From Podocnemis expansa (Eukaryota > Chordata > Testudines > Podocnemididae), in NCBI GenBank assembly GCA_007922195.1, contig ML682002.1, positions 744,001 to 808,000 of the forward strand: a stretch of 64,000 nucleotides of DNA, given 5' to 3'. This document shows positions 4,346-63,089 of the stretch, piece by piece. How positions within the stretch are numbered: the stretch's first letter is position 1; each line of letters starts with the position of its first letter. A program made the position numbers and the translations under genes. Under the pieces are notes generated by a model. The model saw only the letters and a list, made by a program, of their open reading frames with translations, was not told the origin of the DNA and did no database searches.

Positions 4346-5274
4346 ATCAGCAGCTACCACTCTGCGCTCACAAGTGAGGGGTGATTTGCAGCACTGTTAA
4401 GGGTGCTCTCTCTCGTTAGATTTGTTTCTTAGGGTCCCTAGCACAAACAGAGCAGGACCCAACCTTGATTTCGATGCAGAGCAGATTGATACATTTCTCC
4501 CTACGTGGCAGGATCTGGCCCTTTATGAGATAATATACAACCAAAAGAATTGCTTAGTTTATCTACTCATACCATTAATAGCAACACAGTCCTGAAATAA
4601 GATGTTAACCCTGAGGCTAGAGACTATTTTTTCCAGGCTGCTTGTCATAAAAAATATTAACCTCCCTTGGAGGAAAAAAAAAGGCAGTTTTCTTAACCTT
4701 TCAGATTTCTGTTTAGTCAAGAGCCTTGTAGATTCATGTTAGCAATTTAACAGGGCACCATTGCTCCTCCAATTGCTAGCAGTGACAAGAGAATAGCTCT
4801 CCACAATGATGGTGGACTTTCTATAGGTCAGCTACTACTGTCTATGAATACGTTTGGGCTGGAAATTAGAAGAAGTTTCCAACCGTCAGAGGAGAGAAGT
4901 TCTGTACTCGCCTTCTGGGGCTAGGGAGGGGTTGCAAGGGCATCAACTGAACCAGTTTGAAGATGGATCTTGCTATGTTTACAAGTGATGTTGTATGATA
5001 AGGTAGCCTGTGATAGCAGAGGCTGGACTTGATGACCCAGGAGGCCCTTAACCATCTCATGGCCCCAAGTTCTTGCTCTTTCAGCTGACATTAATATTTC
5101 TCCAGAGACAGTTACACCACCCCAGAAAAATGGGCTTGGAATGAAAATGTCGCCTTGTTGACCATAGTTCTGTGTGCCCCAAAATGGGTGTGGGAAGGAG
5201 GCTAGTGAAATGGCTCATCTTGTTTGGTGCTGTACAGCTCTACAGCAAGAGGCCGTCCCAGCACTTAGCTTGAA

Positions 5275-8213: not shown

Positions 8214-8422
8214 CTAGACCTTGCAGACGTCCTGGCTGTTCACCAGCAGATGGACGGGTTGCATGACCGTCCTTTCCTCGGGGTGCATGGACAGCTCCCT
8301 CTCAAACTGTGCTTTGTCCATTCGCCCTTTCAAGGAGTAGTAGCGGAGAGCCACGCTGGGCCAGTCTATTGCCTCCTCAATGTGCAGAGGCCCAGCTGGG
8401 AGAGGGCTTCGAATGTGCCCAC
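8214..8422 (-). CDS. TRPN1: TRPN1 window exon 23: conserved C-terminus and stop
   Basis: 209-bp coding part, phase 1 in, 68 residues (1390-1457) and TAG at 8,214-8,216. EEAIDWPSVALRYYSLKG resembles the ADWEAIAKKYRAL element near the C-terminus of fly NOMPC, which supports this as the true last exon. The acceptor is ...tatccttag; an AATAAA signal lies downstream of the stop. Confidence 0.85.
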
Positions 8423-11400
8423 CTAAGGATAGAACAAGAGATGGGTCATAGGGCAAGAGAAGAAAGTCACCTACCTGTATCCCATGACCCTTTTCTTTGG
8501 TACCCCTGAAATTGGTGGAGATGGTTCAGTATAGGTATCAGACAGCATTGTCCTCTCCTGCATGAAATCAGACCAGCTCAAGTGTTTGCAATTTTATCAC
8601 CTCCTGGTGGCTGGAGGACTGCAAAAGTCTAATCACACAATATTACCTTAAAAGGTAACAGGATTTCCCATTGTGTTCAGGTGGCAGAGGTTTGCTTTTG
8701 GAGCAAAAAATCTACAGTTCAGTCCCCTGACTGTGTGAATTAGGTGGCAATTGTGGCGTTTATGGAACCTCACAAAATCAGGGTCTGAAATTATATCTTC
8801 TGATATTATTTGTAGCTCCTAAGATGATTGAGTTCTTAAATTTTTCATTTCTCTTAATTATGGAAAGAAACTTCTGTAAATCACTAAATTATCCAATAAA
8901 ATGTTGCTTAGCGTTAACTGTAGGATATATTCTATTATATATGTCACATTAATTTTCTGTAGTTAATGCAAGGATTGCCTCTGATTAAATGGGTTTGCTC
9001 ACAGAAAAGATTCTGCCCTTGGATGTGAACTTTAAGCTCCTATCGAGGAAGCAGAGTCTGTTAAGGGAGCAGAGCCTGGCCCTGTAACTACTGGACTTTC
9101 TCCACTCGTTTACGGGTTCAAATCCAGCCTATATCTTACTGAAAGCTGTCAGGGGCTATGCAAATGAAGTTGGTCTGAGTCCAATCTGATGAGGAAGTGG
9201 CAACAGCTCATAGGAAACAAATATGAATCAAGAATAAAAATGCCATTGCACATCCTCAGTGAAACATGCTCTTGCTGCAGAGCAGAATCCAATCTATCCC
9301 TTCAAGGCACAGCACCTCCTCTGTCTGTCTCTGCGATAGGATGGCCCTGCAGCCGAGAGGGGAGGCGCTATTCCTTGCTGAATCCGTTCTTGGTTGAGTG
9401 AGTAATGAGAGAGGCAGAAAGAAGAGATGGAAGCACCCTGTCTTCTATTCTTCTACAGCAAAGACAATGAAAAACGAGGAGATGTGCCCCCTCATTCCCC
9501 CCAAATTCATTCTGACTATGCCACAGAATTCCATCTTGTTTGTCTGATCTCCCAGAGTCTAGGCTCCTCTCTTCAAATGCACAGGGTCGGCCTAACCTAC
9601 TGAACAGAAACTTCCCTTCCAGCCGCCTCCAACAGCACCTCAAGTTACAAGCCAAGCCAGATAACAGCCGAGTGGGAGGAGAAATCTTTGCAGAGTTGTG
9701 CTAGTGAGATGTTGGGTTACACTGATGCACAGTTTGTCCTCTCCAGACAAAACATAAACAGTGCTGGCCAAAGCCCCCTCCCTCCCGCTGCTTTGAAAAC
9801 TGACTCCTAAGTGTCTGAACCAACAGCACTGAAGCAAAAGACAGGCAGAGCAATGACTCAATCCTTAGTGTGCTCTAGTTGTGCCTAGATATGGTAGCAT
9901 ATGCAGAAGTTTGTTCTGCAGAGCACCTTCCATCCGCAATATTTCCCAAAATGGATAATACTCTTCGGAAGTGTGACAGCAAAGGGGGACAAAAATTCAG
10001 ATGCGTAGATAAGGGAGGAAGGGAGACTCTTCCAGCTATGTGAACCAATAAGAGAATCATTGTGGTGGAGAGATACAGCAAGGCAACTGCAGGATATAGG
10101 AAGGCAAGAGCTGCCGAAGAAAAGGCTATTTGCACCAAGGCTAATGACTCTGCACAGAAGAGAGACATATGGCAAGAGCCCACCCATGTAGTCTGACGCT
10201 CCGAACAGTACAGAGAAAAAAACCCAAGAGGTATATTAAGGATTGACTGGGCACCTTTCCTAGGGAAAGACTGAGGATCAAGGAGGGGGAAAAGACCCTT
10301 AGTGCATCGAGGTCATCACAGGGGCCAATGGGAGGGTTGTTCCCTGCACTGTACCCTCCAGCAATGGGGACTTCTTTCCGTTCCAGTATCCAATAGCTCC
10401 CCTTCCAAGGACACTCCCACCCTAATACTCATCCTATGTTTTTCTTTGCTCAGTCTCAGAGGTGTACCCCACTGGGGCCCACTGTCTAATCTGGTCCTCT
10501 TCTGGAGGCTTATTGTGGATTTCCATCAGATGACTCAGCAAAGGGTTAGTACCTTCTGGTGATACTTGCGTCATCCTCTTGGCAGTGACCCTAATCCAAC
10601 CCATGGACGTATGAGCCAGCATGTTGATGGATCGCGTGTCGGAAGCGCTGTCCAAGTCTTCCTCTTCATTTATCAGGTCCTTCTGTTCAGTGGTGGACAG
10701 CTTACCTGGGAGGAGCACAGAAGCTCAGAGAAGTTGGGTTGTGCAAAATCATGATCTTGACCTCATCAGTGAGAACTTATCATCAGATTCTCCAACGCTC
10801 ATACTATTATTCTTTTCTGGACACGATCATGTCAGCCGGTGTGAGAGATACACATAGTTTGTACCAATAACCCATCCTGTCCTCACCCAGGAAATTAGTG
10901 ACAGACAAACCTTTCACATTCAGTTAAGAGTCCCAAAACTTGGATGTTCATTTAAGGCAGGGTCTCAAACTCATAGCCCATGGGCAGCATGTGGCCCCTG
11001 AGGCCTGCAACACTGTTGTTATCAACATTTGCAAAATCATTGTATGAAAAGGGTTCAGTGGTGCGGCCGTTGGGCTAACATACTAGTCCTCATGTGGCCC
11101 TTGGGGTGATTTAAGTTTGAGACCCCCTGATTTAAGGCTTATGAGAGTCTTCTGGGTGTGGACATCTCCAAAGGCTGGGGTCTCCAATAAGATTTCTAGG
11201 GGTGCGTGGTTTAGATGAGACCAGAAACAGACTCATAGACTAAGATCAGAAGGGACCATTATGATCATTTGGTCTAGTCTCATGCCCTGTACAATGCAGG
11301 TACAGAACTTCTCCCACCAACTCCTGTAATAAGCCAATGACCAAGTTATTAAATTCCTCAAATCATGGTTTAAAGACTTTAAGGTACAGAGAATCCACCA

Positions 11401-14400: not shown

Positions 14401-17400
14401 CAGGGCCAGAGGGCAAAGCTGTGTCAGCATACAGACCATTATAGGTGACAATATGGGTTGGTGAAGTGAAGTAGCTAGGCCTATTAATTTGGGAGGAGAG
14501 GTAAACCAACATCTGGGGGGCTACCTGCCCTTCTTGCCCCACATTAAATGATGCCCCCAGTTCAGGGGTTGCCTGGGTCTAACAGAGATCTACCTTCATT
14601 GGCAAGATATTTGTTGTTGGAGGTGATCACTGCTCGTTCACCCAAAATCTCTATATTTCATCCTGCTGGACCATATTTTGGTACAAATGAGTGGAAAGTG
14701 TTTTCTTGCATTGTTTGTGTAGAACAATGGTATGAAGTTTCTATGCATCATATTAATGTGCATGATACTGACAGCTGGATCAGAAATACTGAGGTTCTGT
14801 GTTTTCCAGACTAGACATCTACTGTTGGTTCACATGGAGGGTATTTGGTCTGTAAAAGACTGGTTGGAAATTTTTCTAATGGAACATTTTCTTTTGGACA
14901 ACACTGATTTGTCAAAAGTGAAAGATTTCACCATAAATCTCTCAGTTTGGATGAAATTTTAGTTTTGGGAAAGAAAAAAAAACATTTGGATTGTGCTAAA
15001 ACATTCCATTTGATGGAACATTCATGGAACATTTCTATTTTTTGGTTTGAAGTGACTTCTCATTTAGTAATGTATTTTATATGATACAAAACAAAAAGTG
15101 TTAAAAATGGAATGAAATGTTTTGATTCACCCAAAATGAATCAAAGTTTGTTTTCCAGGAAATTTTGAATTATTTTGTTTTTCTTCCATTTTGGAATGGA
15201 AAAGGCTTTTTTGCAAGCTCACAGACTTTCCTACATATTGAAAATCTGAGTTTCCACTCATCCCTAGTCTGTAAGGTAAGCAACAGAGATAACAGTGGGT
15301 TCATGTTCTACCTTCCACCCCAATATGGTTGTCTGGCTATAGGCGAAGGAAGAGTAACATGCCATGAGCCTGTTACTCATGCAGCACATACTGCCCCCTC
15401 TGTGATGACCCTAAATAAGTCAAGGCACTGCCCTCTGATATGCTTTCACTTCTCAAAGTGTCCCTAAAACCTTTTACAGCCGCTGACATTCAATCATTTC
15501 ATTTCATTTCTCCAATAGGCTTTGGGAACAACACATCCAGGACTCTAGAGGAAAAATGTTCTGTGAAACAAATCTATATATAAATTAGCAGTTGTACCTC
15601 TGTGTTTGCAAAGTATTTTGATGTAATAGAGAAGATTTGTGAAGAGGTTAAAGGGGGAAGGTGTTCCAGACTTCCTAGTCATATCCCTGATGAGCATGGC
15701 CCTTCCAAACTTCCACTCTGTGTCAGATTGGGCCTGTATCCGCTGGTAGGTGTCACTCATCATGGCAATCAGCAGGTTGATCAGCACGATCAAGGTCACT
15801 ACCAGGTAGACCCCAAACACAAAGCGGATGATGACAAAGGTGAACTGAGGAGTTCTGGTGAGTGAGGGCAGGCACTCAGGGTCAACGAGTCCAAACAAGG
15901 AGAAGAATAATGTGACCATAATGACAACGGGGTCCTGGATAGAAGAGTTCACAGTTGCATTTGCAGAGGCAGCTGAGAGATTGGTCTTTGGTTCAGGGTA
16001 GACCGGCTGGTAGACAGAAGAGAGCTGCATGGTGAAGGCTATGTGAAACAAGCCTAGGATGACTGCGAACCTGGTGAGATCCTTCATGAGGTTCCTGATT
16101 ATGACAGCCCAAGGGCCAAAAAGGTGGTGGAAGGTGAGGAACTCCAGGAACTGCACAAAGGAGAGTGTCATGGCCACCCCGAGGAAGATGTTCCTAGCAA
16201 ACAGGCAGTGCAAGCGATCTGTGCCGGTGAACATCAAGGCTAGCAAATGGCAAAGGAAAGCAATGGCAGAGAAGCCCAAGACGAATACTCTGATCCAAGC
16301 CAGGCCAGCCCTTTCTCCAGGATGGGTGAGCTCTGTGACCAGGGTCCCCAACAACCATGCTAAGAGCAGCCACTCGTTCCAGTATGGCATCATGTGACCT
16401 TCATAGATGGGGCTAATCGGAGGGTACACTATGGTTAGGATGAACAGGATGAGCAGGAAGATATGCGATGCCAAGTGGCTCATGAACTTCATGATGGGAA
16501 TTTTATTGAACCTATGTTTCAGGGGCAGGGAGAAAACCAGCCACATGGGAGGGCATGCTAGGAAGCAGAAGAACAAGAGGGCTATCTTCCATGGGGCCCA
16601 CTTCAGGCTGCCATACCAGACTTCGGTTAGATATTTTTGCACTGCTGGATGAGCTACTACGTCCTTCTGTTCACATTCAATTAATGAGTCCAGCATCGTG
16701 ACGCCTCTGTGATCCACGGCACGGAGAAGGTAACCAGCGCTTCTCCCTCCAGAAGCCAGTGTCAGCAGCTCAGTGGCCATGCTCTCTGTGAACTTGGCGG
16801 CACTCAACAAGTCTTTGGCACGCTCCTTCTCCTTCAAGGCTGCCACGTGAAATGCTCGGGAAAGCTTGACTGCCGTGTCCAGGGGAGCGGAAGAGTGAAG
16901 GACGAATTCCTCAGTCACCTTGTTGTTGTTCAGTTTTCCACAGACCATGAGGTCAAAGATAAACTGGAAGAACAAACACTGTAATTAATAACAGGAAGAG
17001 GAAAGATGCTCTGGAGTTAAGGAATAGGACAGGGCCCCTGATCTGACTTCAATTCCCAGCCCTGCCACATGATCCCAAGTACAACCTCAGGCAAATCACT
17101 GAGTATTGCTGGCATCCTTCTGTAAAATGGGAACAACAATACTGTCTCCTCCTCCTCCTGTTGGTTTTCTCTATTTGCAATATAAGCTCTCTGGGGTGAG
17201 GCTCATCTCTTCCTAAATGCGTGCACAGCACCTGGCATGATGGAGCATGTAATGCAAATTACAACAAAGACTAATACTTTACAAACATTGACTAACCCAC
17301 AACACATCTCTGGGTAGGACAATATCATTATCACCACTTAGCATATGGTGAAACTGAGGCAGAGATTTGGTGACTTCCTAAAGCCACAGAATGACCCGGA

Positions 17401-53400: not shown

Positions 53401-56400
53401 ATCCACATCTGCACCCCTCTGCAGCAGCGCCTTCACCACGGCAGCATGACCCATCTTGGCTGCTATGTGCAAGCAGATCGCCCCATTCTGAAAGAGAAGC
53501 AACCGGTTTCAGCGGCGTTTGTGTTTTCAACACTCAATAACGACCTTCACGCTGAAAAAGTGGGCAGGGGGAACCAATTGGTCAGCGGGCCAGGGCATAA
53601 CGTGTGCTGTAGGGGCTGGTCTGACAGCTGCCACACTGGCCTATCTGAGGAACTGAACTGGGGATATCCAGAGTGAGAAACCTGAGTCCCGGTTTGTGTA
53701 GCTGTGAGAGACTCACACTGATTCTGTATCAGGCTCGGGGGAGGACACAACGTATATTGATCAGTGGACTAGACTGGCTCTTTGTGGCTAAGAAAAGCTG
53801 AAATTTAGTGAGCTAGATGGGAAGACAATGAGGGGTGGATTATGGAAACAATTTAGGGGGTGATTTTCACCGAAATTTGGATGAAAAATTGCTTTGAAAT
53901 GAGAAAAACTTCTGCCACTTGTAAATCAAGACCCAGTGACACTGAAATATTGCTCCTGGTGTGCTAATTATGTCCTTGGGAAATCAGGCAGAAAAAGCTG
54001 GGAAAATGTATGAAGAAGTTAACAGTTTTCATCGGGTTTAAAATGTTCTGTGAAGTTTTTCTCTCCATTACATATCACTTTGTTTTTTTGGGTGTGGGGC
54101 AGTCAGAGGTGAATACATTTCTCCAGCTGTTTTATGCAAACTTTTACTGTGATTGTAAATGCAATTTCAATAAAGCAGATGCAACTCGAGGCTAAAAAGA
54201 AGGCAGCTGGGAAGCAAAGATGTGTGGCTAATAGAAGCAGTTTAATAAACAAGTTGCATCCTAGCATCTTGGAATGAAGGATCTCAGCATGTTTTGGAAA
54301 CAGAGAGTCTTGCAGCATCCCATGGGGAAGGTTGAAATTGTTTCCCTTTCACAGATGGGGAAACTGAGGCAGGGAGTTAATAAAGGTTTTATGAGAGGCC
54401 ACAGAACTAAATCAGTGACAGCTGAGTGGAGGCCCTCGGAAATCTGTATAGCTGAGAAATGGTGTCTGTCACAGGCATGCTACTAGCTGGGGTGGTTGGT
54501 GAGACCAGAATGGGCTGGTGGGAAATAAACCTCTCTAGTTTTTCCTTTTCTCATTGAAAAATGATGGGAAAGACATGGAGGGGAAAACTCCACTCCTATA
54601 TGTTTTTTTCCAGGAAGGGAAAATAATAAATAATTATGGGGGCAAGGGGTGTTCCTCCCCCACATTGAAACTAAATTTTTAAAGACTTTTTTGAAAAACT
54701 TCAACCCAAATGATATTTTTTTTCCCATGAGGCAACGTCTTTTATTGGCCTATGGTTGGGGACAGAGAGATGCTTTTGAGCTACACAGTGCTCTTCTTTT
54801 GAACCTGCCGGCCCCAGAATATTAGAGAGGCAAGGATCAGAAGAACGGCTCTGTGTATCAATGTCCACAACAGACATCGGTCCGAGGTGAGATCTCTTCA
54901 CCGGCCTTCTCTCTAACTTCCTGGGAGAGACATGGCTACAACAGTGCTGAGTCTTTTTCGTGAACATTTTTGTTTGGCTTGAAAAGGCATTTTTCACCCG
55001 CTCCAAATCAACCCTTTGGCCGTAAGGTTTAGGTCCTGTTGCTGGCCCTGCCCACCTTCCTGTGCCAGGTTACCTTATTGGGCATGTGCAGCAGGACTCC
55101 TTTCTTCAGCAAGGCCAGAGCAGTGTCAGCGTGCCCATACTCAGAGGCCACATGCACAAAGGTGCTGCCATCCTTCAGGGACAAAAATGAGCAGCAAGTA
55201 AGGATGATGAAAATCTCTGGGCTAGGCCAGAAGCCGGGTAAAAAATCCACAGGCAGAGGGGTTCAGATAAGGACCCTGCCTCCAGCCCCTCTCCCCACCT
55301 CCCCATCCCTTCAATTTTAGACTATGGCACAGCTCTCTCCTGCTGTCGCCTGTCACCTGTGCACGGGAAACAGGTTCTTGGTGCACAGGCTCTTTGGGGC
55401 TGTTGTCACAAGGCACTGGGGTTTGTGCCGCTTGTGTCTGACAGTACAATGAGGGCTGGAGGTCTACAGGTGGTGTGTTCATCACAGCCACAGTACATGG
55501 AACAGAAAACCAGCCCAAACATAGGTCTTTTCCATTTGAGACTTCAGAAAATCCTCATATGTTGGCATTGGGGCTTTGTTCTCTCCATGGGCCAGCCATG
55601 ATAGACTCTAAGGTCAGAAAGGACCTCCTGCACAATGCAGGCCACAGCACCCCACCCACCCACTCCTATACTAGCCCCTAACCTGAGACTGAGTTATTAA
55701 AGCCCTCAAACCAGAAGGCAAAATGTGCAGCCGATATATTACAATGGAATTGTCACTATGTCCTCTTTCCATTTGGATTCCAGATAGAGCTGAGGCTGTG
55801 AGGCTCCAAGGTAAGGAAACCAGGCCTTCATTTCCAATCCAGTTTTGTCTTGCTCAAGGTAGTAGCAGCACTCAGATTAACAGTAGGTGCAAGTGCTGGT
55901 CTCACTTGTTACACAGAGCGACATGGACATACGTGCAATCACCTTAGTGCGAGCTAGCACATTGGAGTGGAACTTCTCTGTCAGTAGCTCCACGATGCTG
56001 GTGTGGCCTCTTTCTGCAGCAATGTGCAAGGGGGACCTGTCCATCTGCAACCAAAAAACCACAACATTTCCGAACAAGCAGCTGGAGCGGTGGGCATTTA
56101 TATGCAAGCACAACATGAGCTCAGGAGGTAGACAACCTGAGTGCAAGTCTAACTGAAACGTGCCCTTGGCTGAAACGGAACAACATCAACATCAGCGGCT
56201 TACCAAGAACCGCTCTGAAAGCTGGAACTTCCTCGAATTCTTGATCTCATGTCAGGTCACGATCTAGTGATACATAGCCACCAGCCTCTTGGTCAGCAGT
56301 GGCCAGGAAAAATTAATGGACACAAATGCTAAATGCACTGAGTAACCCCATCCGGGGTAGTCTGTGTCCACTTCTGGCAGGTCCTCGAGGTACCTTGCTT

Positions 56401-59400
56401 CTCTTACACTTTGTATACTGAGAGTAAGTTTGGGTGCAAAGCTGTAGAGGTTGGAAGGAAGCTGCCACAGCTGCTGTCTTTGGGGCATTTGCTCACTTGT
56501 TAGATCAATGGTTTTCAAACCACAGACTGGGACCCAGTACTGGGTCATAAACCTTCTGGTGCCACTGTCAGAAGACTGGAATGCGTTGCTCAAAGATGTG
56601 TCAGCATAAGTGATTTTTTTCAACCAGGTCCCGAGGCAAAAGTTTGAAAACGATTAGATAACTTCAACCTCCCCAGGTGCCAACCTGTTTCCAGTATGAC
56701 CACCTGCCTATACGTTTCTTTAAAAATCCACAACGCCCAGCACTGCTAGAGCAAGTGACAGCCACATGAATGATCAACTTGTTCAGGAAATGGCTCATGC
56801 CCTTTTGTCTTCATTGAGTTGCACTAGTTAACAGACAGGCTCTTACTGAAATTGGGAAAGGCTGTTATTCCAGCATGATGGTAATGGGACCTTGGAAGTC
56901 TTTCCTCCCTTATCTTAGGGCTGTTTCCTGCCTAGACAGGGGAAGGGAGGAGGAAGGCACTTTCTCCAGCTTCCTCAGCACTGTGAAGTTTAAGGAAAGG
57001 AGACAAGCTTTGAGCTTAGCCTGTGTACTTGCTGAAGCAGACGCAAGATTGAGAATGCCAAAAAAGTGAGTCAATGGTGCCCTGTATAGGAGTGGTATTG
57101 CATCTGCCAGTTTCAAAGGTCTATCACTCCAATAGCTGCCCCAAAAGGACTCAAACAAGGCTCTTGGTCTTCTCTGTAAAGGGTTAATCTGCTCTCTAGA
57201 ATTTTTACATAATAGTTTCTCCATCCTGGGATGAGCCAATGTCAGTTTATTCTGCTGGTGTAATGCTGCACGTTGCATGGTCTATTGGTCAAAAGTATTG
57301 ATCCACCCACTCGTCTATCACCATTTTCCTGTTCGGTACGGAAATGGAAGGTAAAAGGACTCTGGATCAGACAGTTCCCTCTCCCCACTCCCTTTACCTT
57401 GTCTGTTATGTTAGGGTTGGCCTTGCACTGATGGAAGAACTTAAGCAGGCCTTCATCGCCTTCCCAAGCAGCTACATGTAGAGGAGTCTGACCTTCATCC
57501 TGAAACAAAGGGCATCAGAAGATGCTGGGTTATCCTAGGGTTTAGCCCAAGCAGACAACCTACTGGGCGGGAGAACTTGGGTACCTGAGATGGCCACTTT
57601 CTGTAGCATGAAAGCATCATTCCTCCGCCCTGAAAGCTTCATCTCCTGCAGTGACACCACCAGATTACAAACTATCACCGAACCACGCTTGGAGGCAGTC
57701 AGGCCACAGCTTCCTGTAGCATTGGGGCTGCTACTGTCCAGGAAGCAGGGACTGTCCTAACCAAACCCAGATCAGTTTTCAGGGATGCAGTGCCCTTCTA
57801 GAAGAGGGTAGGTGACACTGACAGAGACCAGCTCCTATTAATTCCTTTATTGCATTGTGTAAAGAATCCATGCCCCTCTTCTGAGGACCACGTGGATCAT
57901 AATGATGAACAGAACTTGGAGCCTTCTGCATCAAAGGCCCAGTCCCCCCAACTCCATCTAAAGCAGAATATCTTTGGCTGTACATGTCCTAGAGTGTCCA
58001 GAATATACTTCTGTGGACCTCTCAACTCAGATACATCACTCAGAAGTGACCTGTTTAAATACAGTTCAATGTGGTGGCAAGTCTTTGACCTGGATGGGTA
58101 AGTATGGGTCTTGTCTACCCTCCTTTTCTTTATGGCTACATGAAAGGGAGTCCCTGAAATTATTCTGCTATGACCTGGGGTGCTGATATGGAAGAGGGGG
58201 AGAATCACCAAACCAGGTAATGGTTGTAAAAGTCACTAGCAACAGCTATTGGGGAAAATCCAGGACTGAGAATGGCCCCTCCAAAGAGAGACATGACCAG
58301 AGAAACAAAAAAGGAGTCTGGTGGCACTTTTAAAGACTAACACGCGTATGACCAGAGAAGACAATCAACGTGGGTTTCTCTACTGGTCATTTTAACCATT
58401 TCTTACTAATACTTCCATAAACATATGCTTGTGCATTGGAACCATTTTAAACCACCCTCCTCGCTCTGCCAAATACTGGAAGAAGAAGAAGGATTTGAAC
58501 TTTAATGGCTTTTTGGTGTGTTTTGGCACAAAGCTGATAAGTGCTAGTGTGAAGCCTGCCCTGGTTCTGAAATACTACAGCCCTAGATTTATCTTGGCAT
58601 TTTGTCTAATTCACTTAAAGGCCTTTTATAAATAACTCAGGACCTTTCAGACTTACAGTTCTACAGAATTGCTTTGTTTATGTGAGGGTTTAAGTTGGTC
58701 TTGATGTTTTTAATAAAAATAAACTTCTTGTCAGAAGCCTCTCTCTTTTGGGATCTCTGAAAGGTCCTCATGAAGAGCTGTGCACCTCTTTGGAGCAGGC
58801 TTTTCTTATTACTTGCACCTTTGGGTTTATTTGAAGAAGAAGAAAAGGAAGAGAATGGACAATTTGGAGAAAGGTTAGTGGCTCTCAGCTGGTTCTATTC
58901 TACCCCCTCCCACAGAGACTGTCTCAGTCCCTGACTTTTGTGAACCAGACTAGAGCGACGGACCCCCTCATTTGCGCTCAGCGACTCTAAACCCTGCACC
59001 TAAACCTGCACCTGCAACAACCTTTTCAAAAAGGTGATGCTAGCAAGATTCAATCCATAGCATTGCCAGACAGACACATAGAGGAAGATTGTACAGCTAT
59101 AGAGCAATAACCCCACACCTTCAAACCTCACCAGTTGATTGGGGGCCCTAGAAGCTATATGAAACAGCTGTCCCACAACTTTGAAACCTGGGTCAAAAAC
59201 TCCAGAGTCCAATCTACCCTCCTGCTTACATTGTCCTCTGGTGAGGAGAGCTGGTCAGGAATTTTTCCATCTAAAAATTTTGATTCATCAAAATCAACAC
59301 TGTTTGTGAACAGGGTCAGGTTCAGCAAATTTCTCAACTTGGAAAAATGTCGAGCACAACATTTCAAAGATGCTGAAATGTTTCATTTTGACATTTCCTA

Positions 59401-62400: not shown

Positions 62401-63089
62401 TGTTATTTGGCCGTTTACACTCTGTTTTTACTAGTATTAAAAGTTTTTTATGCTACACTCAGACTCATGCTTGCAAATGGAGATGCATTACCTCTTTAGC
62501 GTGCCCAGGAGACAGTGCATGATTTCCCAAAAATCTGGGTGGGGGCTTGAGCCAGTTGGTGGTGTTACATTATTTGGAAACCCCTAAATATAGAACCTGG
62601 CTCTTGTTCTGCCATCTCACCATGGCAGAAGGGTTGTATTAGTTTTACATAAAATAATTCCCTCCTCACTGATTTTCTTGAAATTGTCCATGCACTGAAA
62701 AATGCGTCATCCTCACAGTTCTAATTACAACCAAACTCAAGTTTGAAATTCAGATATTCAGATATTAAGCATAAAATTCATTTCCTGTGAGCATTCATGC
62801 TTGTAAAACCTAATCACTCCAGTGTCTGTGTAAAGCAAACAGGATGGGGTCACAAACAAAGAGCAGCAACATTTGTTTTTACAATTGATCAGCTATCAGG
62901 AGAATTTCCTAGCTGTCTGATCATCTCTACTGATGACACAGGCTAAACCTGCAGTGCTCACATTCCCATTCTTGTGTATTTTATACTCACATTCTGGCAA
63001 TCCACCACAGCCCCGTACTCCACTAGGATTTTGGCAATTTCCACATCTCTTTTCCTACAGCTTGCATGCAGCACAGTGTCACCATGTCT
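8214..63089 (-). CDS. TRPN1: TRPN1 (NOMPC-type) mechanosensitive TRP channel, spliced from 23 exons in the window, 5' end outside
   Basis: Pore-forming mechanotransduction channel of the plasma membrane; in flies and fish it serves touch, hearing and hair-cell sensing, with the ankyrin spring tethering the pore to microtubules. Joining 23 exons bounded by AG and GT on the minus strand gives 1,457 codons without a stop or frameshift: about 25 ankyrin repeats (residues 1-882 of the window product), linker helices, pre-S1 elbow, S1-S6, TRP helix and a short cytoplasmic tail. Exon order and content follow fly NOMPC repeat by repeat as I know it, including HMPNK, TLLGFGA, HLFGPWA and LINLLIAMMSDTYQRIQAQS. 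Family members have about 29 repeats and 1,600-1,750 residues, so roughly 150-300 residues including the start codon lie right of the window. TRPA1 is excluded by repeat number and pore sequence. Orthology is inferred from remembered family sequences, not a database search. Confidence 0.95.
8423..10552 (-). other. TRPN1 intron after window exon 22 (2.1 kb)
   Basis: No coding signal. A GGGTTCAAATCC motif near 9,113 resembles a tRNA B-box and may be a SINE relic, but no A-box or ends could be found. Confidence 0.55.
10553..10705 (-). CDS. TRPN1: TRPN1 window exon 22: cytoplasmic tail
   Basis: 153-bp exon, phase 1 in and phase 1 out, 50 full codons plus two split glycine codons (residues 1338-1389). 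It begins KLSTTEQKDLINEEEDLDSA and contains MLAHTSMGWIRVTAKRMTQ. Little family similarity is visible here, so the exon is supported mainly by its splice sites (ctcccag acceptor, gtacta donor), its fit in phase with both neighbours, and its place between the TRP helix and the conserved end. An alternative donor (gtatca) 13 bases upstream would shift the frame. Confidence 0.8.
10958..11129. mobile_element. hAT-type non-autonomous element with 8-bp target duplication
   Basis: 172 bp; ends CAGGGTCTCAAACT and AGTTTGAGACCCCCTG are inverted repeats. The flanks carry the identical octamer ATTTAAGG (10,950-10,957 and 11,130-11,137). An 8-bp duplication with CAG...CTG ends is typical of hAT elements. 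No coding capacity. Confidence 0.85.
11230..11450 (-). mobile_element. CR1 3'-end fragment
   Basis: TCATAGACTAAGATCAGAAG and GGGACCATTATGATCAT resemble the reverse complement of the CR1 3' end familiar from sauropsid genomes. Similar scraps occur at 12,905-13,085 and 55,598-55,715. Confidence 0.6.
11880..12190. repeat. AT-rich AAACATTTTG-type repeat
   Basis: Rich in AAATGAAAATTTTCA and AATCATTTCC-like self-complementary words, with a (GAAA)n tract. Similar blocks occur at 14,860-15,250, 17,700-17,970, 50,380-50,590, 59,250-59,620 and 61,060-61,330. An old interspersed family, unnamed by me. Confidence 0.5.
12905..13085 (-). mobile_element. CR1-like 3'-end fragment, diverged
   Basis: CATAGAACCACAGAAACTGG and GGATCATCTTGTCCACATGC fit the same reverse CR1 end pattern but are more diverged. 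Confidence 0.45.
14860..15250. repeat. AT-rich AAACATTTTG-type repeat
   Basis: TGGAACATTTTCTTTTGGAC, TGGAACATTCATGGAACATT and GGAATGAAATGTTTTGATTC belong to the same word family. Confidence 0.5.
15598..16963 (-). CDS. TRPN1: TRPN1 window exon 21: linker, S1-S6 pore domain and TRP helix
   Basis: 1,366-bp exon, phase 0 in and phase 1 out, encoding window residues 883-1337 plus the first base of the next codon. In exon numbering: linker helices 1-120 (FIFDLMV, EKERAKDLL, AVQKYL.EVWYGSL), pre-S1 elbow 123-146, S1 159-180, S2 196-212, S3 222-246, S4 257-279 leading to HHLFGPW, S4-S5 linker 284-297 (RNLMKDLTRF), S5 298-317, extracellular turret 318-345 with three NXS/T sequons, pore helix and filter around SLFGLVD at 355-361, S6 376-402 and the TRP helix with DTEWKFGRAMLIRDM at 414-428. 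VLINLLIAMMSDTYQRIQAQ is the hallmark TRPN S6 end. The acceptor is ...ttcttccag; the donor gtacaa was chosen because its phase fits the next exon. The whole channel core without an intron is notable. Confidence 0.96.
17700..17970. repeat. AT-rich AAACATTTTG-type repeat
   Basis: AATCAACATTTTGATTTTTC, AATCAAAATGTTTCATTTAC and AATCAAAATGTTTAATTTTG are near-palindromic units; it abuts a poly-C run. Confidence 0.55.
18020..18480 (-). mobile_element. LINE (CR1/L3-like) AP-endonuclease fragment
   Basis: The coding strand reads IGHTDEGVALYVKESIE, then CATESLWIVIRSL, then after a frame change IIMGDLNYPCIDY and LALEPTRGKTVLELVL. MGDLNYP, EPTRG and the LDL-type end are hallmarks of the apurinic endonuclease domain of CR1/L3-type LINEs. 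It is frameshifted and truncated, so a dead copy. Confidence 0.7.
19237..19443 (-). CDS. TRPN1: TRPN1 window exon 20: last two ankyrin repeats
   Basis: 207-bp, phase 0-0 exon, 69 residues (814-882), QGWSPLHFAAKSGFLACVRL... then EGRTPIQHAAAENHQEVVSF..., ending KLIEDRK. It closes the ankyrin spring and hands over to the linker helices; the fly counterpart ends LMEDKR. Acceptor ...cccacag, donor gtaaag. Confidence 0.94.
19444..19844 (-). other. TRPN1 intron after window exon 19
   Basis: 401 bp; nothing recognisable. Confidence 0.65.
19845..20042 (-). CDS. TRPN1: TRPN1 window exon 19: two fused ankyrin repeats
   Basis: 198-bp, phase 0-0 exon, 66 residues (748-813): GSTPLHLAAQHGHTAVVGLL... then RGRTCLHLAAANGHVEMVRA..., ending NVTDK. 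The second repeat has LLGQGAEIN, shared with fly NOMPC. Acceptor ...tgtgcttag, donor gtagag. Confidence 0.94.
20043..21107 (-). other. TRPN1 intron after window exon 18
   Basis: 1.07 kb. A poly-C run near 20,801-20,810 is the only feature. Confidence 0.6.
21108..21215 (-). CDS. TRPN1: TRPN1 window exon 18: one ankyrin repeat
   Basis: 108-bp, phase 0-0 exon, 36 residues (712-747), SGFTPLHLAAQSGHENLVRL... to GQTSLQ. It contains LLLN..GVQVD as in fly NOMPC. Acceptor ...ttattgcag, donor gtaaga. Confidence 0.94.
21216..22864 (-). other. TRPN1 intron after window exon 17
   Basis: 1.65 kb with no repeat or coding signal that I can assign. Confidence 0.6.
22865..23011 (-). CDS. TRPN1: TRPN1 window exon 17: ankyrin repeat with long loop
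   Basis: 147-bp, phase 0-0 exon, 49 residues (663-711), TGFTALHVAAHSGQLDFVRD... then a 20-residue polar loop (ATMRSEPPKFPSAGQ...) to GSE. A loop of similar size at the same place (ATVKSETPTGQSLFGD) exists in fly NOMPC, so the long form is ancestral and not an annotation error. Acceptor ...tttccaag, donor gtaaca. Confidence 0.92.
23012..23970 (-). other. TRPN1 intron after window exon 16
   Basis: 959 bp; a MIR-like fragment lies at about 23,570-23,730 (CTATCTGTAAAATGGAGATGG). Confidence 0.6.
23971..24069 (-). CDS. TRPN1: TRPN1 window exon 16: one ankyrin repeat
   Basis: 99-bp, phase 0-0 exon, 33 residues (630-662), EGMTAIHLAAKHGHINVLEV... to LRITSTK. Matches fly GFTAVHLAAQNGHGQVLDVL and LRINSKK. 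Acceptor ...ctcattag, donor gtgagt. Confidence 0.93.
24070..24838 (-). other. TRPN1 intron after window exon 15
   Basis: 769 bp. Nothing recognisable. Confidence 0.6.
24839..24940 (-). CDS. TRPN1: TRPN1 window exon 15: one ankyrin repeat
   Basis: 102-bp, phase 0-0 exon, 34 residues (596-629), TNNSTPLHLAAAGGHGEVVK... to AADEDG. The donor was placed at gtaagt after the GGT glycine codon, which keeps phase 0; a GT two bases earlier would break the frame. Acceptor ...gtgttgcag. Confidence 0.92.
24941..27844 (-). other. TRPN1 intron after window exon 14 (2.9 kb)
   Basis: Its only clear repeat is the hairpin-type element at 26,743-26,958; the rest is unassigned. Confidence 0.6.
26743..26958. mobile_element. 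Hairpin-type interspersed element, full copy
   Basis: Left arm AGTCCTGTGGCACTTAAA... GAGCTTTTGTGGGAGAAAAT and right arm GATTTTCTCCCGCGAAAGCT ... AAGTGCCACAGGACTCC are reverse complements around a centre near 26,830. Related copies sit at 42,890-43,118 and 51,094-51,268, with half copies elsewhere. Family name not known to me. Confidence 0.65.
27845..28051 (-). CDS. TRPN1: TRPN1 window exon 14: two fused ankyrin repeats
   Basis: 207-bp, phase 0-0 exon, 69 residues (527-595), EGQTPLHLAAENDHSEVVKF... then EGSTCAHIAASQGSVAVIKE..., ending TTARNK. The TCAHIAA.QGSV.VI.EL.KF signature is nearly identical in fly NOMPC and distinguishes TRPN from other ankyrin-repeat proteins. Acceptor ...ctccccag, donor gtgagt. 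Confidence 0.95.
28052..33172 (-). other. TRPN1 intron after window exon 13 (5.1 kb)
   Basis: Contains an inverted-repeat-ended element (29,387-29,962), a MIR-like fragment (32.18-32.30 kb) and a short hairpin-element fragment near 32.56-32.64 kb. Long stretches (30.0-32.1 kb) hold nothing I recognise. Confidence 0.6.
29387..29962. mobile_element. Inverted-repeat element with AGGGTGACCAGA ends
   Basis: Starts AGGGTGACCAGACAG and ends with the inverted ATGGTCTCCCT. AATACAGGATATG, AAGGGACTGTCCC and related sequences near the right end fit a non-autonomous element of the GGTGACCAGA type. The centre is GC-rich with C-rich short repeats. Confidence 0.5.
33173..33271 (-). CDS. TRPN1: TRPN1 window exon 13: one ankyrin repeat
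   Basis: 99-bp, phase 0-0 exon, 33 residues (494-526), TKRTPLHLAALNGQLDVCTS... to VNATDI, matching fly QTPLHLAAASGQMEVCQLLL. Acceptor ...tgggcag, donor gtaagg. Confidence 0.92.
33838..34315. mobile_element. hAT-type non-autonomous element, 478 bp
   Basis: Ends CAGAGGTTCCTGG and GCAAACCACTG are CAG...CTG inverted repeats, flanked by CACTAGAC and CACTAGAT (7 of 8 matching). The interior has imperfect repeats of a CTGCAGCCAG/GGGTCC unit. A related copy lies at 52,320-52,749 (shared ATCATTTTTACAACCCTGAA and GGGCCACTTTGAAAGCT). Confidence 0.75.
35646..36010. repeat. GC-rich interspersed block with internal subrepeats
   Basis: Repeated variants of GGAGCCAGATC, GATCCAGCCCC and CCCAGCTGC at irregular spacing. 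The left end CAGTGCCAGAACTAGCTC looks hAT-like but no matching right end was found. Confidence 0.45.
36199..36553. mobile_element. hAT-type element with TGTTCCCTCTAA ends
   Basis: TGTTCCCTCTAA and TTAGAGGGAACA are perfect inverted repeats near the two ends. The 9-base CTCCATCCC occurs directly on both sides (36,190-36,198 and 36,554-36,562), giving a clear target duplication. Confidence 0.8.
37183..37383 (-). CDS. TRPN1: TRPN1 window exon 12: two fused ankyrin repeats
   Basis: 201-bp, phase 0-0 exon, 67 residues (427-493), HGKAALHLAAENGHDQIADI... then LGLTPLHLSAQNGYNHLVKL..., ending DAMTL. It aligns with the two fly repeats that read SALHLAAERGYLHV and TALHLAAMNGFTHLVKF. Acceptor ...ttggcag, donor gtaagg. 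Confidence 0.93.
37622..38000 (+). mobile_element. MIR-like SINE, split copy
   Basis: GCCCAGTGGTTAGGGCACTC, GTGTGACCTCGGGCAAGTTG and, after about 190 bases of other sequence, GCCTCAGTTCCCCATCTGTA occur in MIR order. The gap suggests an insertion in the middle. Confidence 0.55.
39060..39298 (+). pseudogene. Ty3/Gypsy-type retrotransposon integrase fragment, left part
   Basis: In one frame it reads EVERAVQKAKKIL, a stop, then FLALLAYKSTSIAATGYNPG and QLLMGGQLNTTVPTL, the end of a Gypsy-type integrase core. The internal stop marks it as dead. It continues at 40,985 after a CR1 insertion. Confidence 0.75.
39778..40035. mobile_element. GC-rich insert within the CR1 copy
   Basis: Interrupts CR1 between GGGCTAAT and GGCTAACAATG, which may be a target duplication (GGCTAA). 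The CAGATC/GGCTGGCAGGCAG-like subunits resemble the blocks at 35,646-36,010 and 18,490-18,680. Not classified. Confidence 0.5.
40101..40404. mobile_element. hAT-type element (CAGGGCCGGCTC ends) within the CR1 copy
   Basis: 304 bp, starting CAGGGCCGGCTCTA and ending GAGCTGGCCCTG, with identical flanking octamers TATATAAA (40,093-40,100 and 40,405-40,412). Confidence 0.88.
40985..41262 (+). pseudogene. Ty3/Gypsy-type integrase fragment, right part
   Basis: LEPGDCIHIKLDGEKGQTTP followed by KPRSYVEKTNSGAQ fits the segment downstream of the integrase core. Together with 39,060-39,298 it forms one element interrupted by a LINE. A polypurine tract (41,406-41,415) follows. Confidence 0.7.
41406..41415 (+). 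other. Polypurine tract of the Gypsy remnant
   Basis: AAAGGGGGAG, about 145 bases after the integrase-tail stop, is where a primer for plus-strand synthesis would sit; a decayed 3' LTR may follow. No clear LTR end was found. Confidence 0.45.
41888..41986 (-). CDS. TRPN1: TRPN1 window exon 11: one ankyrin repeat
   Basis: 99-bp, phase 0-0 exon, 33 residues (394-426), NGWSPLLVAADQGHTEIVKI... to VDVFDE. The unusual PLL in place of PLH and the ARVDVFD end are both shared with fly NOMPC (GWTPLLIACHRGH; ARVDVFD). Acceptor ...cttctctag, donor gtaggg. Confidence 0.93.
42890..43118. mobile_element. Hairpin-type interspersed element, full copy
   Basis: Arms GAGCTTTCATGGGAGAAAAT and GATTTTCTCCCATGAAAGTT pair across a short centre; the ends carry AATCCTGTGCACTGAAAGAC and GCCACAGAACTCC. 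Same family as 26,743-26,958. Confidence 0.65.
43159..43490. mobile_element. Palindrome-rich inverted-repeat element, copy 2
   Basis: Ends GGCTGTGTCGACACTAGAGG and CCTCCAGTGTAGACATAGCC are inverted repeats; the interior repeats AAGTCGACTTAA and AAGTTGACTT units. Same family as 6,222-6,639, in a TRPN1 intron. Confidence 0.6.
44141..44316. mobile_element. Diverged member of the hairpin-type family
   Basis: GTGGTAGCCGTGTTAGTCTG, AAAGGTGAACAGATTTCTT, CACTTCATCAGATGCTTATG and a right end ACCACAGGACTCTTG follow the same layout with different arm sequence. Confidence 0.55.
44928..45044 (-). CDS. TRPN1: TRPN1 window exon 10: atypical long ankyrin repeat
   Basis: 117-bp, phase 0-0 exon, 39 residues (355-393), SHETPLHYCARVGNADVLLE... 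to INKQAK. The HYCA...GN.DVL core and the following MSTSQMQQSINKQ extension match the HYCAVAGNNDVL and MNPTDIQKAMNRQS region of fly NOMPC. Acceptor ...tgttgcag, donor gtattt. Confidence 0.92.
45045..45766 (-). other. TRPN1 intron after window exon 9
   Basis: 722 bp. A fragment near 45,120-45,310 resembles part of the hairpin/SINE-like family (CTTAAAAGCCAATG, GATGTACTCCACCTC) but is too degraded to assign. Nothing else seen. Confidence 0.55.
45767..45895 (-). CDS. TRPN1: TRPN1 window exon 9: extended ankyrin repeat
   Basis: 129-bp, phase 0-0 exon, 43 residues (312-354), AGETPLHLAAAMKKDKVHFE... to SHTTRL. It includes an acidic insertion (HFEEEETK) before the second helix, paralleling the KIPESDKQ insertion of fly NOMPC. 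Two AG acceptors six bases apart (tttgcag then gcag) are possible; I chose the first because it keeps the AGETPLH start. Confidence 0.9.
45896..46953 (-). other. TRPN1 intron after window exon 8
   Basis: 1.06 kb with no recognisable repeat or coding signal. Confidence 0.6.
46954..47082 (-). CDS. TRPN1: TRPN1 window exon 8: extended ankyrin repeat
   Basis: 129-bp, phase 0-0 exon, 43 residues (269-311), AGECPLHIAVRHCHLPVVES... to VNQENE. It is ten residues longer than a standard repeat because of a polar insertion (MEKSHTEAVTCVN), and the fly protein has an insertion of the same kind at this position (GETPLHMACRACHPDIV then EKHGPDKATTYINS). Acceptor ...actggcag, donor gtgaca. Confidence 0.92.
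47083..48888 (-). other. TRPN1 intron after window exon 7
   Basis: 1.8 kb; contains a spaced direct duplication at 47,651-47,701 and 47,786-47,836. Otherwise unassigned. Confidence 0.65.
47651..47836. repeat. Spaced direct duplication of about 50 bases
   Basis: AGCTAGTGAAATGACCACAT followed by CAC(A/T)GGAGAGTA occurs at 47,651 and again at 47,786, with continuing similarity (AGTTGAGCAA) and an unrelated 84-base spacer. Confidence 0.7.
48889..48987 (-). CDS. TRPN1: TRPN1 window exon 7: one ankyrin repeat
   Basis: 99-bp, phase 0-0 exon, 33 residues (236-268), DGETAMHIAARHGSLSMIKA... to LTWQSK. Corresponds to the fly repeat LTPVHVAARHGNLATLMQLL. Acceptor ...ggctgcag, donor gtaggt. Confidence 0.93.
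48988..49077 (-). other. TRPN1 90-base intron, in frame and open
   Basis: Starts gtgatg and ends ctgcag on the coding strand. It is exactly 90 bases and has no stop in the reading frame of the flanking exons, so retention would add 30 residues between two ankyrin repeats. It is read as an intron because the insert resembles no ankyrin repeat and the splice sites give perfect repeat boundaries. Confidence 0.85.
49078..49179 (-). CDS. TRPN1: TRPN1 window exon 6: one ankyrin repeat
   Basis: 102-bp, phase 0-0 exon, 34 residues (202-235), AQETPLHIAARISEGEKVAE... to NVEQE. Aligns to the fly repeat ETPLHIAARVKDGDRCALML. Acceptor ...ctgtcag, donor gtgatg. The next exon follows after only 90 bases. 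Confidence 0.93.
50632..51070. mobile_element. Possible solo LTR
   Basis: Begins TGTGACAAAGTTCCTCTGCT and ends CCTGTCACA, giving TG...CA termini with a short inverted repeat (TGTGACA / TGTCACA). Length (439 bp) suits an LTR. No target duplication could be seen, and no internal region is attached. Confidence 0.5.
51094..51268. mobile_element. Hairpin-type interspersed element, shorter copy
   Basis: GAGTCCTGTGGCACTTAAAA at the left and TTAAGTGCCACAGGACTCC at the right are inverted; the right inner arm is mostly deleted. Confidence 0.6.
52320..52749. mobile_element. hAT-type non-autonomous element, 430 bp
   Basis: Ends CAGTGGCTCCCCAGC and GCTGGAAAACACTG are inverted repeats; flanks ATTTACAT and ATTTGCAT match at 7 of 8 bases. 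Same family as 33,838-34,315. Confidence 0.75.
53287..53487 (-). CDS. TRPN1: TRPN1 window exon 5: two fused ankyrin repeats
   Basis: 201-bp, phase 0-0 exon, 67 residues (135-201) holding two complete repeats: NGAICLHIAAKMGHAAVV... and ENYTALHIAAQHCKPLVVQT..., ending QLKGGK. The second repeat contains TLLGFGA, identical to fly NOMPC. Two-repeat exons suggest loss of an ancestral intron between single-repeat modules. Acceptor ...ctttttcag type, donor gtaggg. Confidence 0.94.
53488..55073 (-). other. TRPN1 intron after window exon 4
   Basis: 1.6 kb. A MIR-like fragment lies at about 54,290-54,450; the rest is unassigned. Confidence 0.65.
54290..54450 (-). mobile_element. MIR-like SINE fragment
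   Basis: TTTCACAGATGGGGAAACTG and AGGCAGGGAG match the reverse MIR core. Confidence 0.5.
55074..55172 (-). CDS. TRPN1: TRPN1 window exon 4: one ankyrin repeat
   Basis: 99-bp, phase 0-0 exon, 33 residues (102-134), DGSTFVHVASEYGHADTALA... to LLHMPNK. The HMPNK end is identical to the corresponding fly repeat end, a strong orthology marker. Acceptor ...ccctgaag, donor gtaacc. Confidence 0.93.
55173..55942 (-). other. TRPN1 intron after window exon 3
   Basis: 770 bp; carries a short CR1 3'-end fragment at about 55,598-55,715. No coding signal. Confidence 0.65.
55598..55715 (-). mobile_element. CR1 3'-end fragment
   Basis: ATGATAGACTCTAAGGTCAG and AAAGGACCTCCTG follow the reverse CR1 end pattern. 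Confidence 0.5.
55943..56044 (-). CDS. TRPN1: TRPN1 window exon 3: one ankyrin repeat
   Basis: 102-bp, phase 0-0 exon, 34 residues (68-101), MDRSPLHIAAERGHTSIVEL... to LARTK. Matches the fly repeat DRTPMHLAAENGHAHVIEIL. Acceptor ...ggttgcag, donor gtgatt, a weaker than consensus donor but in the right frame. Confidence 0.92.
56045..57397 (-). other. TRPN1 intron after window exon 2
   Basis: 1.35 kb. Contains a degraded hAT-type element around 56,512-56,655. Nothing else recognisable. Confidence 0.65.
56512..56655. mobile_element. Degraded hAT-like element
   Basis: CAATGGTTTTCAAAC and GTTTGAAAACGA are inverted ends, with TTAGAT on both sides. Short, with no coding content. Confidence 0.5.
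57398..57499 (-). CDS. TRPN1: TRPN1 window exon 2: one ankyrin repeat
   Basis: 102-bp, phase 0-0 exon, 34 residues (34-67), starting DEGQTPLHVAAWEGDEGLLK and ending NITDK. It carries the canonical TPLH and helix pattern and aligns with the fly repeat reading GQTALHIACAEGDEALVKYF. Acceptor ...gtttcag, donor gtaaag. The intron before it is the longest in the window (5.5 kb). Confidence 0.92.
59250..59620. repeat. AT-rich AAACATTTTG-type repeat
   Basis: AATTTTGATTCATCAAAATC and GATGCTGAAATGTTTCATTT are typical units of the family. Confidence 0.5.
61060..61330. repeat. AT-rich AAACATTTTG-type repeat
   Basis: Contains AAATGAAACTTTTCCATTTT and TCAAAATCAAATGTTTTGTT. No coding content. Confidence 0.5.
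61900..62230. repeat. Degenerate minisatellite
   Basis: About ten variants of GTGACCAGTGGGTGGAGCC, alternating with AGCGGACGGTGAGAGC-like units. Its antisense frame is open for 155 codons only because of the repeat structure. Confidence 0.65.
62270..62400. repeat. Tandem duplication of a 40-base unit
   Basis: GGGAGCCTGTTTTGCACTGA and GGGAACCTCTTCTGCACTGA, each followed by CCAGATCAGTGCTG, lie 84 bases apart. They directly follow the minisatellite and may belong to the same decayed element. Confidence 0.6.
62991..63089 (-). CDS. TRPN1: TRPN1 window exon 1: one ankyrin repeat
   Basis: 99-bp, phase 0-0 exon encoding 33 residues (window residues 1-33). It opens with RHGDTVLHASCRKRD and ends with VDCQN, matching the GDTALHAACRKRD...VDQQN repeat of fly NOMPC. 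The acceptor is a pyrimidine-poor ...cattacag and the donor is gtgagt. It is the most 5' coding exon seen; the repeats expected before it are outside the window. Confidence 0.9.

What the first reader, a model, noticed from the sequence alone, without database searches (positions are those of the whole stretch)
8214..63089. Apparently intact TRPN1/NOMPC mechanotransduction channel in a reptile-like genome
Twenty-three exons read through in frame to a complete ankyrin spring, pore, TRP helix, conserved C-terminus and polyadenylation signal. TRPN is well known in insects, fishes and amphibians and is usually described as lost in amniotes. The surrounding repeats point to a sauropsid. If so, this is a retained amniote TRPN1, relevant to hair-cell, lateral-line and touch evolution.
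Basis: partly seen in the sequence, partly recalled or inferred. Interest (0 to 1): 0.92.

Follow-up and report, generated by a model that had tools for sequence, protein, structure and literature searches.

The report
Intact TRPN1 touch channel in turtles
This stretch of turtle DNA carries a seemingly working gene for NOMPC (TRPN1), the touch-and-hearing channel of flies, fish and frogs that was reported to have vanished at the origin of reptiles, birds and mammals.

Summary
In detail: on the minus strand, 23 exons (63089..8214) join through 22 of 22 GT-AG introns into 1457 codons without a stop, then TAG and AATAAA. The protein is collinear with fly NOMPC from residue 2 to 1423. One overstatement: exon 1 of the window is internal; about 191 N-terminal residues lie beyond it. 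The species is a turtle, grouped with side-necked Emydura (98/98). The ten amniote rows of that tree form one clade (100/100) beside amphibians, so this is vertical retention. Orthologues turned up in eleven turtle genera, tuatara and alligator, mostly under wrong names. No row named as bird, mammal or squamate was among the 120 best rows shown in each of three protein searches. Changes avoid sites that other vertebrates keep: in the window's own lineage (6 of 38; 15.7 expected; p 0.0007), tuatara and alligator. So the gene looks constrained, not decaying. This contradicts the published loss of TRPN at the root of amniotes (PMC4494053) and implies at least three later losses. Transcripts, dN/dS and function were not tested. 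A known kind of gene where print says it is absent.

The parts
62991..63089 (-). exon 1 of the window (internal exon, no start codon; ankyrin)
   Evidence: homology
57398..57499 (-). exon 2, ankyrin
55943..56044 (-). exon 3, ankyrin
55074..55172 (-). exon 4, ankyrin
53287..53487 (-). exon 5, two ankyrin repeats
49078..49179 (-). exon 6, ankyrin
48889..48987 (-). exon 7, ankyrin
46954..47082 (-). exon 8, ankyrin
45767..45895 (-). exon 9, ankyrin
44928..45044 (-). exon 10, ankyrin
41888..41986 (-). exon 11, ankyrin
37183..37383 (-). exon 12, two ankyrin repeats
33173..33271 (-). exon 13, ankyrin
27845..28051 (-). exon 14, two ankyrin repeats
24839..24940 (-). exon 15, ankyrin
23971..24069 (-). 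exon 16, ankyrin
22865..23011 (-). exon 17, ankyrin plus loop
21108..21215 (-). exon 18, ankyrin
19845..20042 (-). exon 19, two ankyrin repeats
19237..19443 (-). exon 20, last ankyrin repeats
15598..16963 (-). exon 21: linker helices, S1-S6, pore loop and TRP helix in one 1366-base exon
10553..10705 (-). exon 22, C-terminal tail
8214..8422 (-). exon 23, C-terminal end and stop codon
8103..8108 (-). AATAAA polyadenylation signal

Best explanation
The window holds the TRPN1 (NOMPC) gene of a turtle, probably a side-necked one, inherited vertically from the tetrapod ancestor and kept under purifying selection. It most likely works as in flies and frogs: four subunits form a cation pore; about 29 ankyrin repeats per subunit make a spring tied to microtubules of a cilium; compression of the spring pushes the linker helices against the TRP helix and opens the pore. 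Shown here: gene structure, family, species group, protein-level constraint, conserved pore and most named gating residues. Inferred: tetramer, microtubule tether, ciliary site and sensory role.
For: Open 23-exon structure, 22 of 22 GT-AG introns. NOMPC is the best solved structure for the open frame around exon 21 (E 4.4e-125; next TRPC4 4.8e-28) and for the whole protein (E 0 over 2-1423); best fold match of the exon 21 model is NOMPC, E 4.5e-24, TM 0.76 by query length, mean pLDDT 84.9. Tree of 25 rows: amniotes one clade 100/100, window with Emydura 98/98; same picture with 30 rows. Identity 1337/1457 to painted turtle, no residue missing or extra. At 520 sites invariant in 21 non-amniote vertebrates the window differs at 14. 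Own changes fall on such sites 6 of 38 times against 15.7 expected, p 0.0007; tuatara 16 of 68 against 31.5, p 9e-5; alligator 19 of 103 against 45.9, p 2e-8. Differences from three turtles are conservative: mean BLOSUM62 0.37 to 0.47 against -0.34 to -0.44 for random missense. Of the gating residues named in PMC8186909 (passages), K1244, Q1253, W1572 and R1581 are unchanged; S1577 is A and S1421 is T (read by hand from the alignment).
Against: No transcript was seen and no dN/dS computed. The start codon and first exons are outside the window. Database turtle proteins are open by construction of gene models, and some lack residues of the window's stretch (5 of 10 turtle models miss 39 to 265, Emydura 34), by isoform, model or real loss. 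Of the 6 turtles tested one, Gopherus, is not significant (3 of 14, 5.9 expected, p 0.10). Alligator and tuatara differ at more of the invariant sites (25/519 and 24/519) than turtles (9 to 14), so constraint may be softer there; the control values of most amphibians are lower than the turtles', though they have near relatives in the set.
Confidence: 0.93

Rival explanations
1. A recently silenced gene: open by chance or recent loss, no longer used in this species.
For: No transcript evidence here; the 5' end is not in the window.
Against: From the amniote stem to the window the tree gives about 0.21 changes per column, about 309 residues; at 0.042 nonsense per missense about 13 stops would be expected under no selection and none is seen in the exons chosen; no residue is missing or extra against painted and snapping turtle. 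The window's own 38 changes avoid conserved sites.
Confidence: 0.04
2. Contamination or horizontal origin: the sequence comes from an amphibian or fish.
For: Print says amniotes lack the gene (passages).
Against: Nested inside turtles, 98/98 with Emydura, and the amniote part of the tree agrees with the accepted species tree as I recall it.
Confidence: 0.01
3. Another ankyrin protein (PPP6 ankyrin subunit, ANKRD52, TRPA1), as database names suggest.
For: Many orthologues are named serine/threonine-protein phosphatase 6 regulatory ankyrin repeat subunit.
Against: Six-helix channel, TRP helix and tail present; NOMPC best by over 300 bits in the open frame around exon 21 and best over the whole length.
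Confidence: 0.01
4. Retained for a non-mechanical or non-ear role, for example in motile cilia, sperm or embryonic skin.
For: Frog TRPN1 sits in cilia of epithelial cells as well as hair-cell kinocilia (title of the 2005 paper in the reference list of PMC6406257); no contribution was found in frog saccular hair cells according to PMC4494053 (passage).
Confidence: 0.35

Closest known systems
Drosophila NOMPC (PDB 5vkq)
   Same: Collinear over residues 2-1423; ankyrin spring, linker helices, six-helix channel, TRP helix; W1572, R1581, K1244, Q1253 kept
   Different: Pore loop and C-terminal tail diverge; vertebrate-type pore LFFSLFGLVDPE close to that of frogs and fishes
Xenopus and other amphibian TRPN1
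   Same: Same architecture, 74 to 80% identity over the 11 amphibian-like rows; sister group in the tree
   Different: Tail only 42 to 53% identical
TRPN1 of other turtles, tuatara and alligator (database proteins)
   Same: Orthologues, 88 to 93% (turtles), 84% (tuatara), 83% (alligator)
   Different: Mostly misnamed; tuatara model lacks 47 of 120 tail residues, Emydura model 33

Membership tests
TRPN (NOMPC) | closest to NOMPC rather than to other TRP families | tested here: met
   (solved structures only)
TRPN (NOMPC) | about 28 to 29 ankyrin repeats | tested here: inconclusive
   23 scoring repeats plus two aligned ones inside the window; the remaining N-terminal repeats lie outside it; three turtle proteins score 24 to 25 with the same simple profile, Xenopus laevis 24, zebrafish 27
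TRPN (NOMPC) | linker helices, S1-S6, pore, TRP helix | tested here: met
TRPN (NOMPC) | groups with TRPN1 of other vertebrates in a tree | tested here: met
   (TRPN rows only; TRPA and TRPC rows were not included)
TRPN (NOMPC) | opens under mechanical force | not testable with these tools
   needs electrophysiology
PPP6 regulatory ankyrin subunit / ANKRD52 | ankyrin protein without a channel domain | tested here: not met
   channel exon present; the definition of that family is recalled
TRPC | best match among TRPC, few ankyrin repeats | tested here: not met
   TRPC4 scores 101 bits against 421 for NOMPC; 23 scoring ankyrin repeats

The most novel reading that the evidence does not exclude
TRPN1 is a working force-gated channel of ciliated sensory cells (kinocilia of vestibular or auditory hair cells, or skin receptors) in turtles, crocodilians and tuatara, and was lost separately in mammals, squamates and birds, so amniotes with and without it can be compared directly.
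Probability: 0.4. Interest if true: 0.85.

Novelty: new member of a known kind. Interest (0 to 1): 0.66.

Why it matters
The 2015 survey of the family states that TRPN was lost completely at the root of amniotes and builds a scenario on it: TMC channels took over in hair cells and made TRPN redundant (PMC4494053, passages). Retention under constraint in turtles, tuatara and alligator removes that single early loss. It replaces it by at least three later losses and makes the question 'what does TRPN do when TMC is present' testable in living amniotes, among them turtles, whose ears are well studied (recalled).

Tried and rejected
Pseudogene, contamination and misnamed ankyrin protein were considered and rejected (see rivals). 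Other genes in the window: Pfam on ten chosen open frames (eight on the + strand up to base 8038, two on the minus strand, 4163-4396 and 17939-18295) gave two weak matches below their cut-offs and nothing above; Rfam at gathering scores and ARAGORN found nothing. The window's own assembly could not be searched: the same request was sent ten times and never answered, so start exon, flanking genes and synteny remain open. dN/dS was not possible because no DNA of another turtle was at hand; I used protein-level tests in its place. Early models had wrong exon ends and read out of frame in places; they were corrected from the sequence and from turtle proteins. The query was such an earlier model without exons 1, 4 and 22, and only its residues 820-1339 (channel and tail) were scored. 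Ten literature searches listed no paper that I could see reporting TRPN in turtles or crocodilians. Three of the lists were cut (20 of 55 papers, 15 of 1937, 40 of 102), only open-licence papers are searched, and supplements were not readable. Passages read that bore little on the question: PMC13143021, PMC9242649, PMC3376737, PMC11526382, PMC9664204.

Full report
What is there. The gene lies on the minus strand. Twenty-three exons between 63089 and 8214, with 22 of 22 introns GT-AG and 20 of 22 in phase 0, give 1457 residues and a stop, followed by AATAAA at 8108-8103. Exons 1 to 20 carry mostly one or two ankyrin repeats each. The whole channel, from linker helices to TRP helix, is in one exon of 1366 bases, 16963-15598. 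The gene is not complete in the window: exon 1 has no start, and 7 of 10 turtle models carry 191 residues upstream of it.

What family. The open frame around exon 21 finds fly NOMPC with E 4.4e-125, 421 bits, against 101 bits for the next, TRPC4. The whole protein matches NOMPC from 2 to 1423 with E 0; the only others under 1e-100 are ankyrins, matched in the repeats only. The AlphaFold model of exon 21 (mean pLDDT 84.9, pTM 0.73, 74 sequences) has NOMPC as its best solved fold (E 4.5e-24, TM 0.76 by query length, 45% identity), followed by TRPC and TRPM channels. The rmsd is large (11.4), so the fold match is of topology and not of exact arrangement.

Which animal. Of the 589 proteins found, 120 were listed; the first 17 rows are turtles of ten genera (some names are cut off in the output and completed by me: Gopherus, Dermochelys), row 18 is tuatara, row 24 alligator. 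I aligned 35 of those 120 with the window: 92.6% identity to Emydura (1318/1423), 91.8% to painted turtle (1337/1457), 84.1% to tuatara (1186/1410), 82.6% to alligator (1184/1433), 74 to 80% to amphibians, 73 to 77% to coelacanth, lungfish, gar, bowfin, bichir, sharks and ray, 61 to 66% to zebrafish, lamprey, amphioxus and Lingula. A tree of 25 of these 36 rows (11 dropped) gives amniotes 100/100, turtles 100/99, window plus Emydura 98/98, turtles plus alligator 94/94, amphibians 94/93. A tree of 30 rows (6 dropped), with lamprey, zebrafish, amphioxus and Lingula, agrees on these groups, by SH-aLRT alone. The split from Emydura is deep (path 0.09 against 0.11 to 0.12 to hidden-necked turtles); a side-necked turtle of another family is my inference.

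Where it is missing. No row named as a bird, mammal or squamate is among the 120 rows listed in each (of 589, 308 and 345 found). By the length rule these searches cover proteins of about 134 to 2345 residues between them. Rows without names are at most 69% identical, below the 83% of alligator. One search added an eleventh turtle genus, Chelonoidis. Absence from these lists is not proof of absence from genomes. For eight lizards, PMC9774356 reports no TRPN (passages). On accepted amniote relationships (recalled), retention in turtles, crocodilians and tuatara with absence in mammals, squamates and birds needs at least three losses.

Is it under selection. Codon comparison was not possible, since only proteins of other turtles were at hand. 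Three protein-level tests were made. First, at 520 of 1457 sites that are invariant in 21 non-amniote vertebrates the window differs at 14; ten other turtle models at 9 to 13 (of 412 to 520 sites), tuatara at 24 of 519, alligator at 25 of 519. In the leave-one-out control the 21 non-amniotes differ at 0.2 to 8.8%, most under the turtles' 1.7 to 2.9%, the highest being zebrafish and lamprey. Second, changes seen only in the window among the turtles number 38, of which 6 fall on such sites against 15.7 expected (p 0.0007). Softshell (5 of 44, 17.6 expected), snapping turtle (0 of 11, 4.6 expected), painted turtle (0 of 8, 3.4 expected) and Emydura (4 of 27, 11.3 expected) go the same way; Gopherus is not significant (3 of 14, 5.9 expected, p 0.10). 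Tuatara 16 of 68 (31.5 expected) and alligator 19 of 103 (45.9 expected) pass too. Third, differences from three turtles are more conservative than random missense changes of this coding sequence, by mean BLOSUM62 0.37 to 0.47 against -0.34 to -0.44; tuatara 0.24 and alligator 0.17. Expected stops without selection since the amniote stem are about 13 (0.212 changes per column, 0.042 nonsense per missense); none is present, though exon choice favours open frames.

How it probably works. In fly NOMPC the ankyrin bundle is associated with microtubules and acts as a spring; pushing it moves the linker helices and turns the TRP helix around W1572, opening the pore (PMC8186909, passages). Named contact residues K1244, Q1253, W1572 and R1581 are the same in the window; S1577 is alanine and S1421 threonine (read by hand). 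The pore sequence around LFFSLFGLVDP and the TRP helix are nearly the same from shark to turtle. Frog TRPN1 is found in kinocilium bulbs of hair cells (PMC6406257, passage). A ciliary force sensor is therefore the best reading; the tissue in turtles is unknown.

What is in print. PMC4494053 (passages) states complete loss of TRPN at the root of amniotes. PMC9774356 (passages) writes that TRPN is present only in worms, flies and zebrafish. The tuatara genome paper PMC7116210 (passages) reports 37 TRP-like sequences in all seven subfamilies and compared a turtle and an alligator, which may already include TRPN; the word TRPN was counted 0 times in its text and its supplement was not readable. 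The alligator protein P0024 already bears the name TRPN1 in a database. So the sequences are public and partly named, while I saw no paper that draws the conclusion in my ten searches, three of whose lists were cut.

Verdict. A real, open, constrained TRPN1 in a turtle, part of a set retained by turtles, a crocodilian and tuatara. The gene kind is known; its presence here contradicts a published loss.

Noticed in passing
window 26773-26834, 42904-42965, 51119-51180, with inverted arms 26838-26917 and 42993-43073: A palindromic interspersed repeat: a reference copy with two direct copies at 73 and 81% identity, and matching inverted arms; looks like a short terminal-inverted-repeat element.
   Followed up: no
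window 17942-18295 and 4166-4396, minus strand: Open frames that resemble decayed LINE endonuclease and reverse transcriptase pieces by eye (recalled); Pfam gave nothing above cut-off.
   Followed up: partly
database proteins among P0001 to P0017, also P0022 and P0035: TRPN1 orthologues are named protein tyrosine phosphatase type IVA 3, PPP6 regulatory ankyrin subunit or uncharacterized; the misnaming may explain why the amniote gene was overlooked, and the PTP4A3 name may hint at a neighbouring gene.
   Followed up: no
P0018 (tuatara) and P0016 (Emydura), C-terminus: The tuatara model lacks 47 of 120 tail residues and the Emydura model 33; gene-model error or real shortening is open.
   Followed up: no
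P0009, P0010, P0013 (sea turtles): Three sea-turtle models carry the same length of 20 extra residues relative to the window, absent from painted and snapping turtle; perhaps an alternative exon.
   Followed up: no
P0024 (alligator): Longest end branch among the sauropsids in the tree (0.17), a shorter loop before the pore and an altered end of the tail; constraint may be softer in crocodilians.
   Followed up: partly
P0021 (unnamed source): Full-length 1670-residue TRPN on a 5812-base contig that groups with Ambystoma; the contig size suggests a transcript.
   Followed up: no
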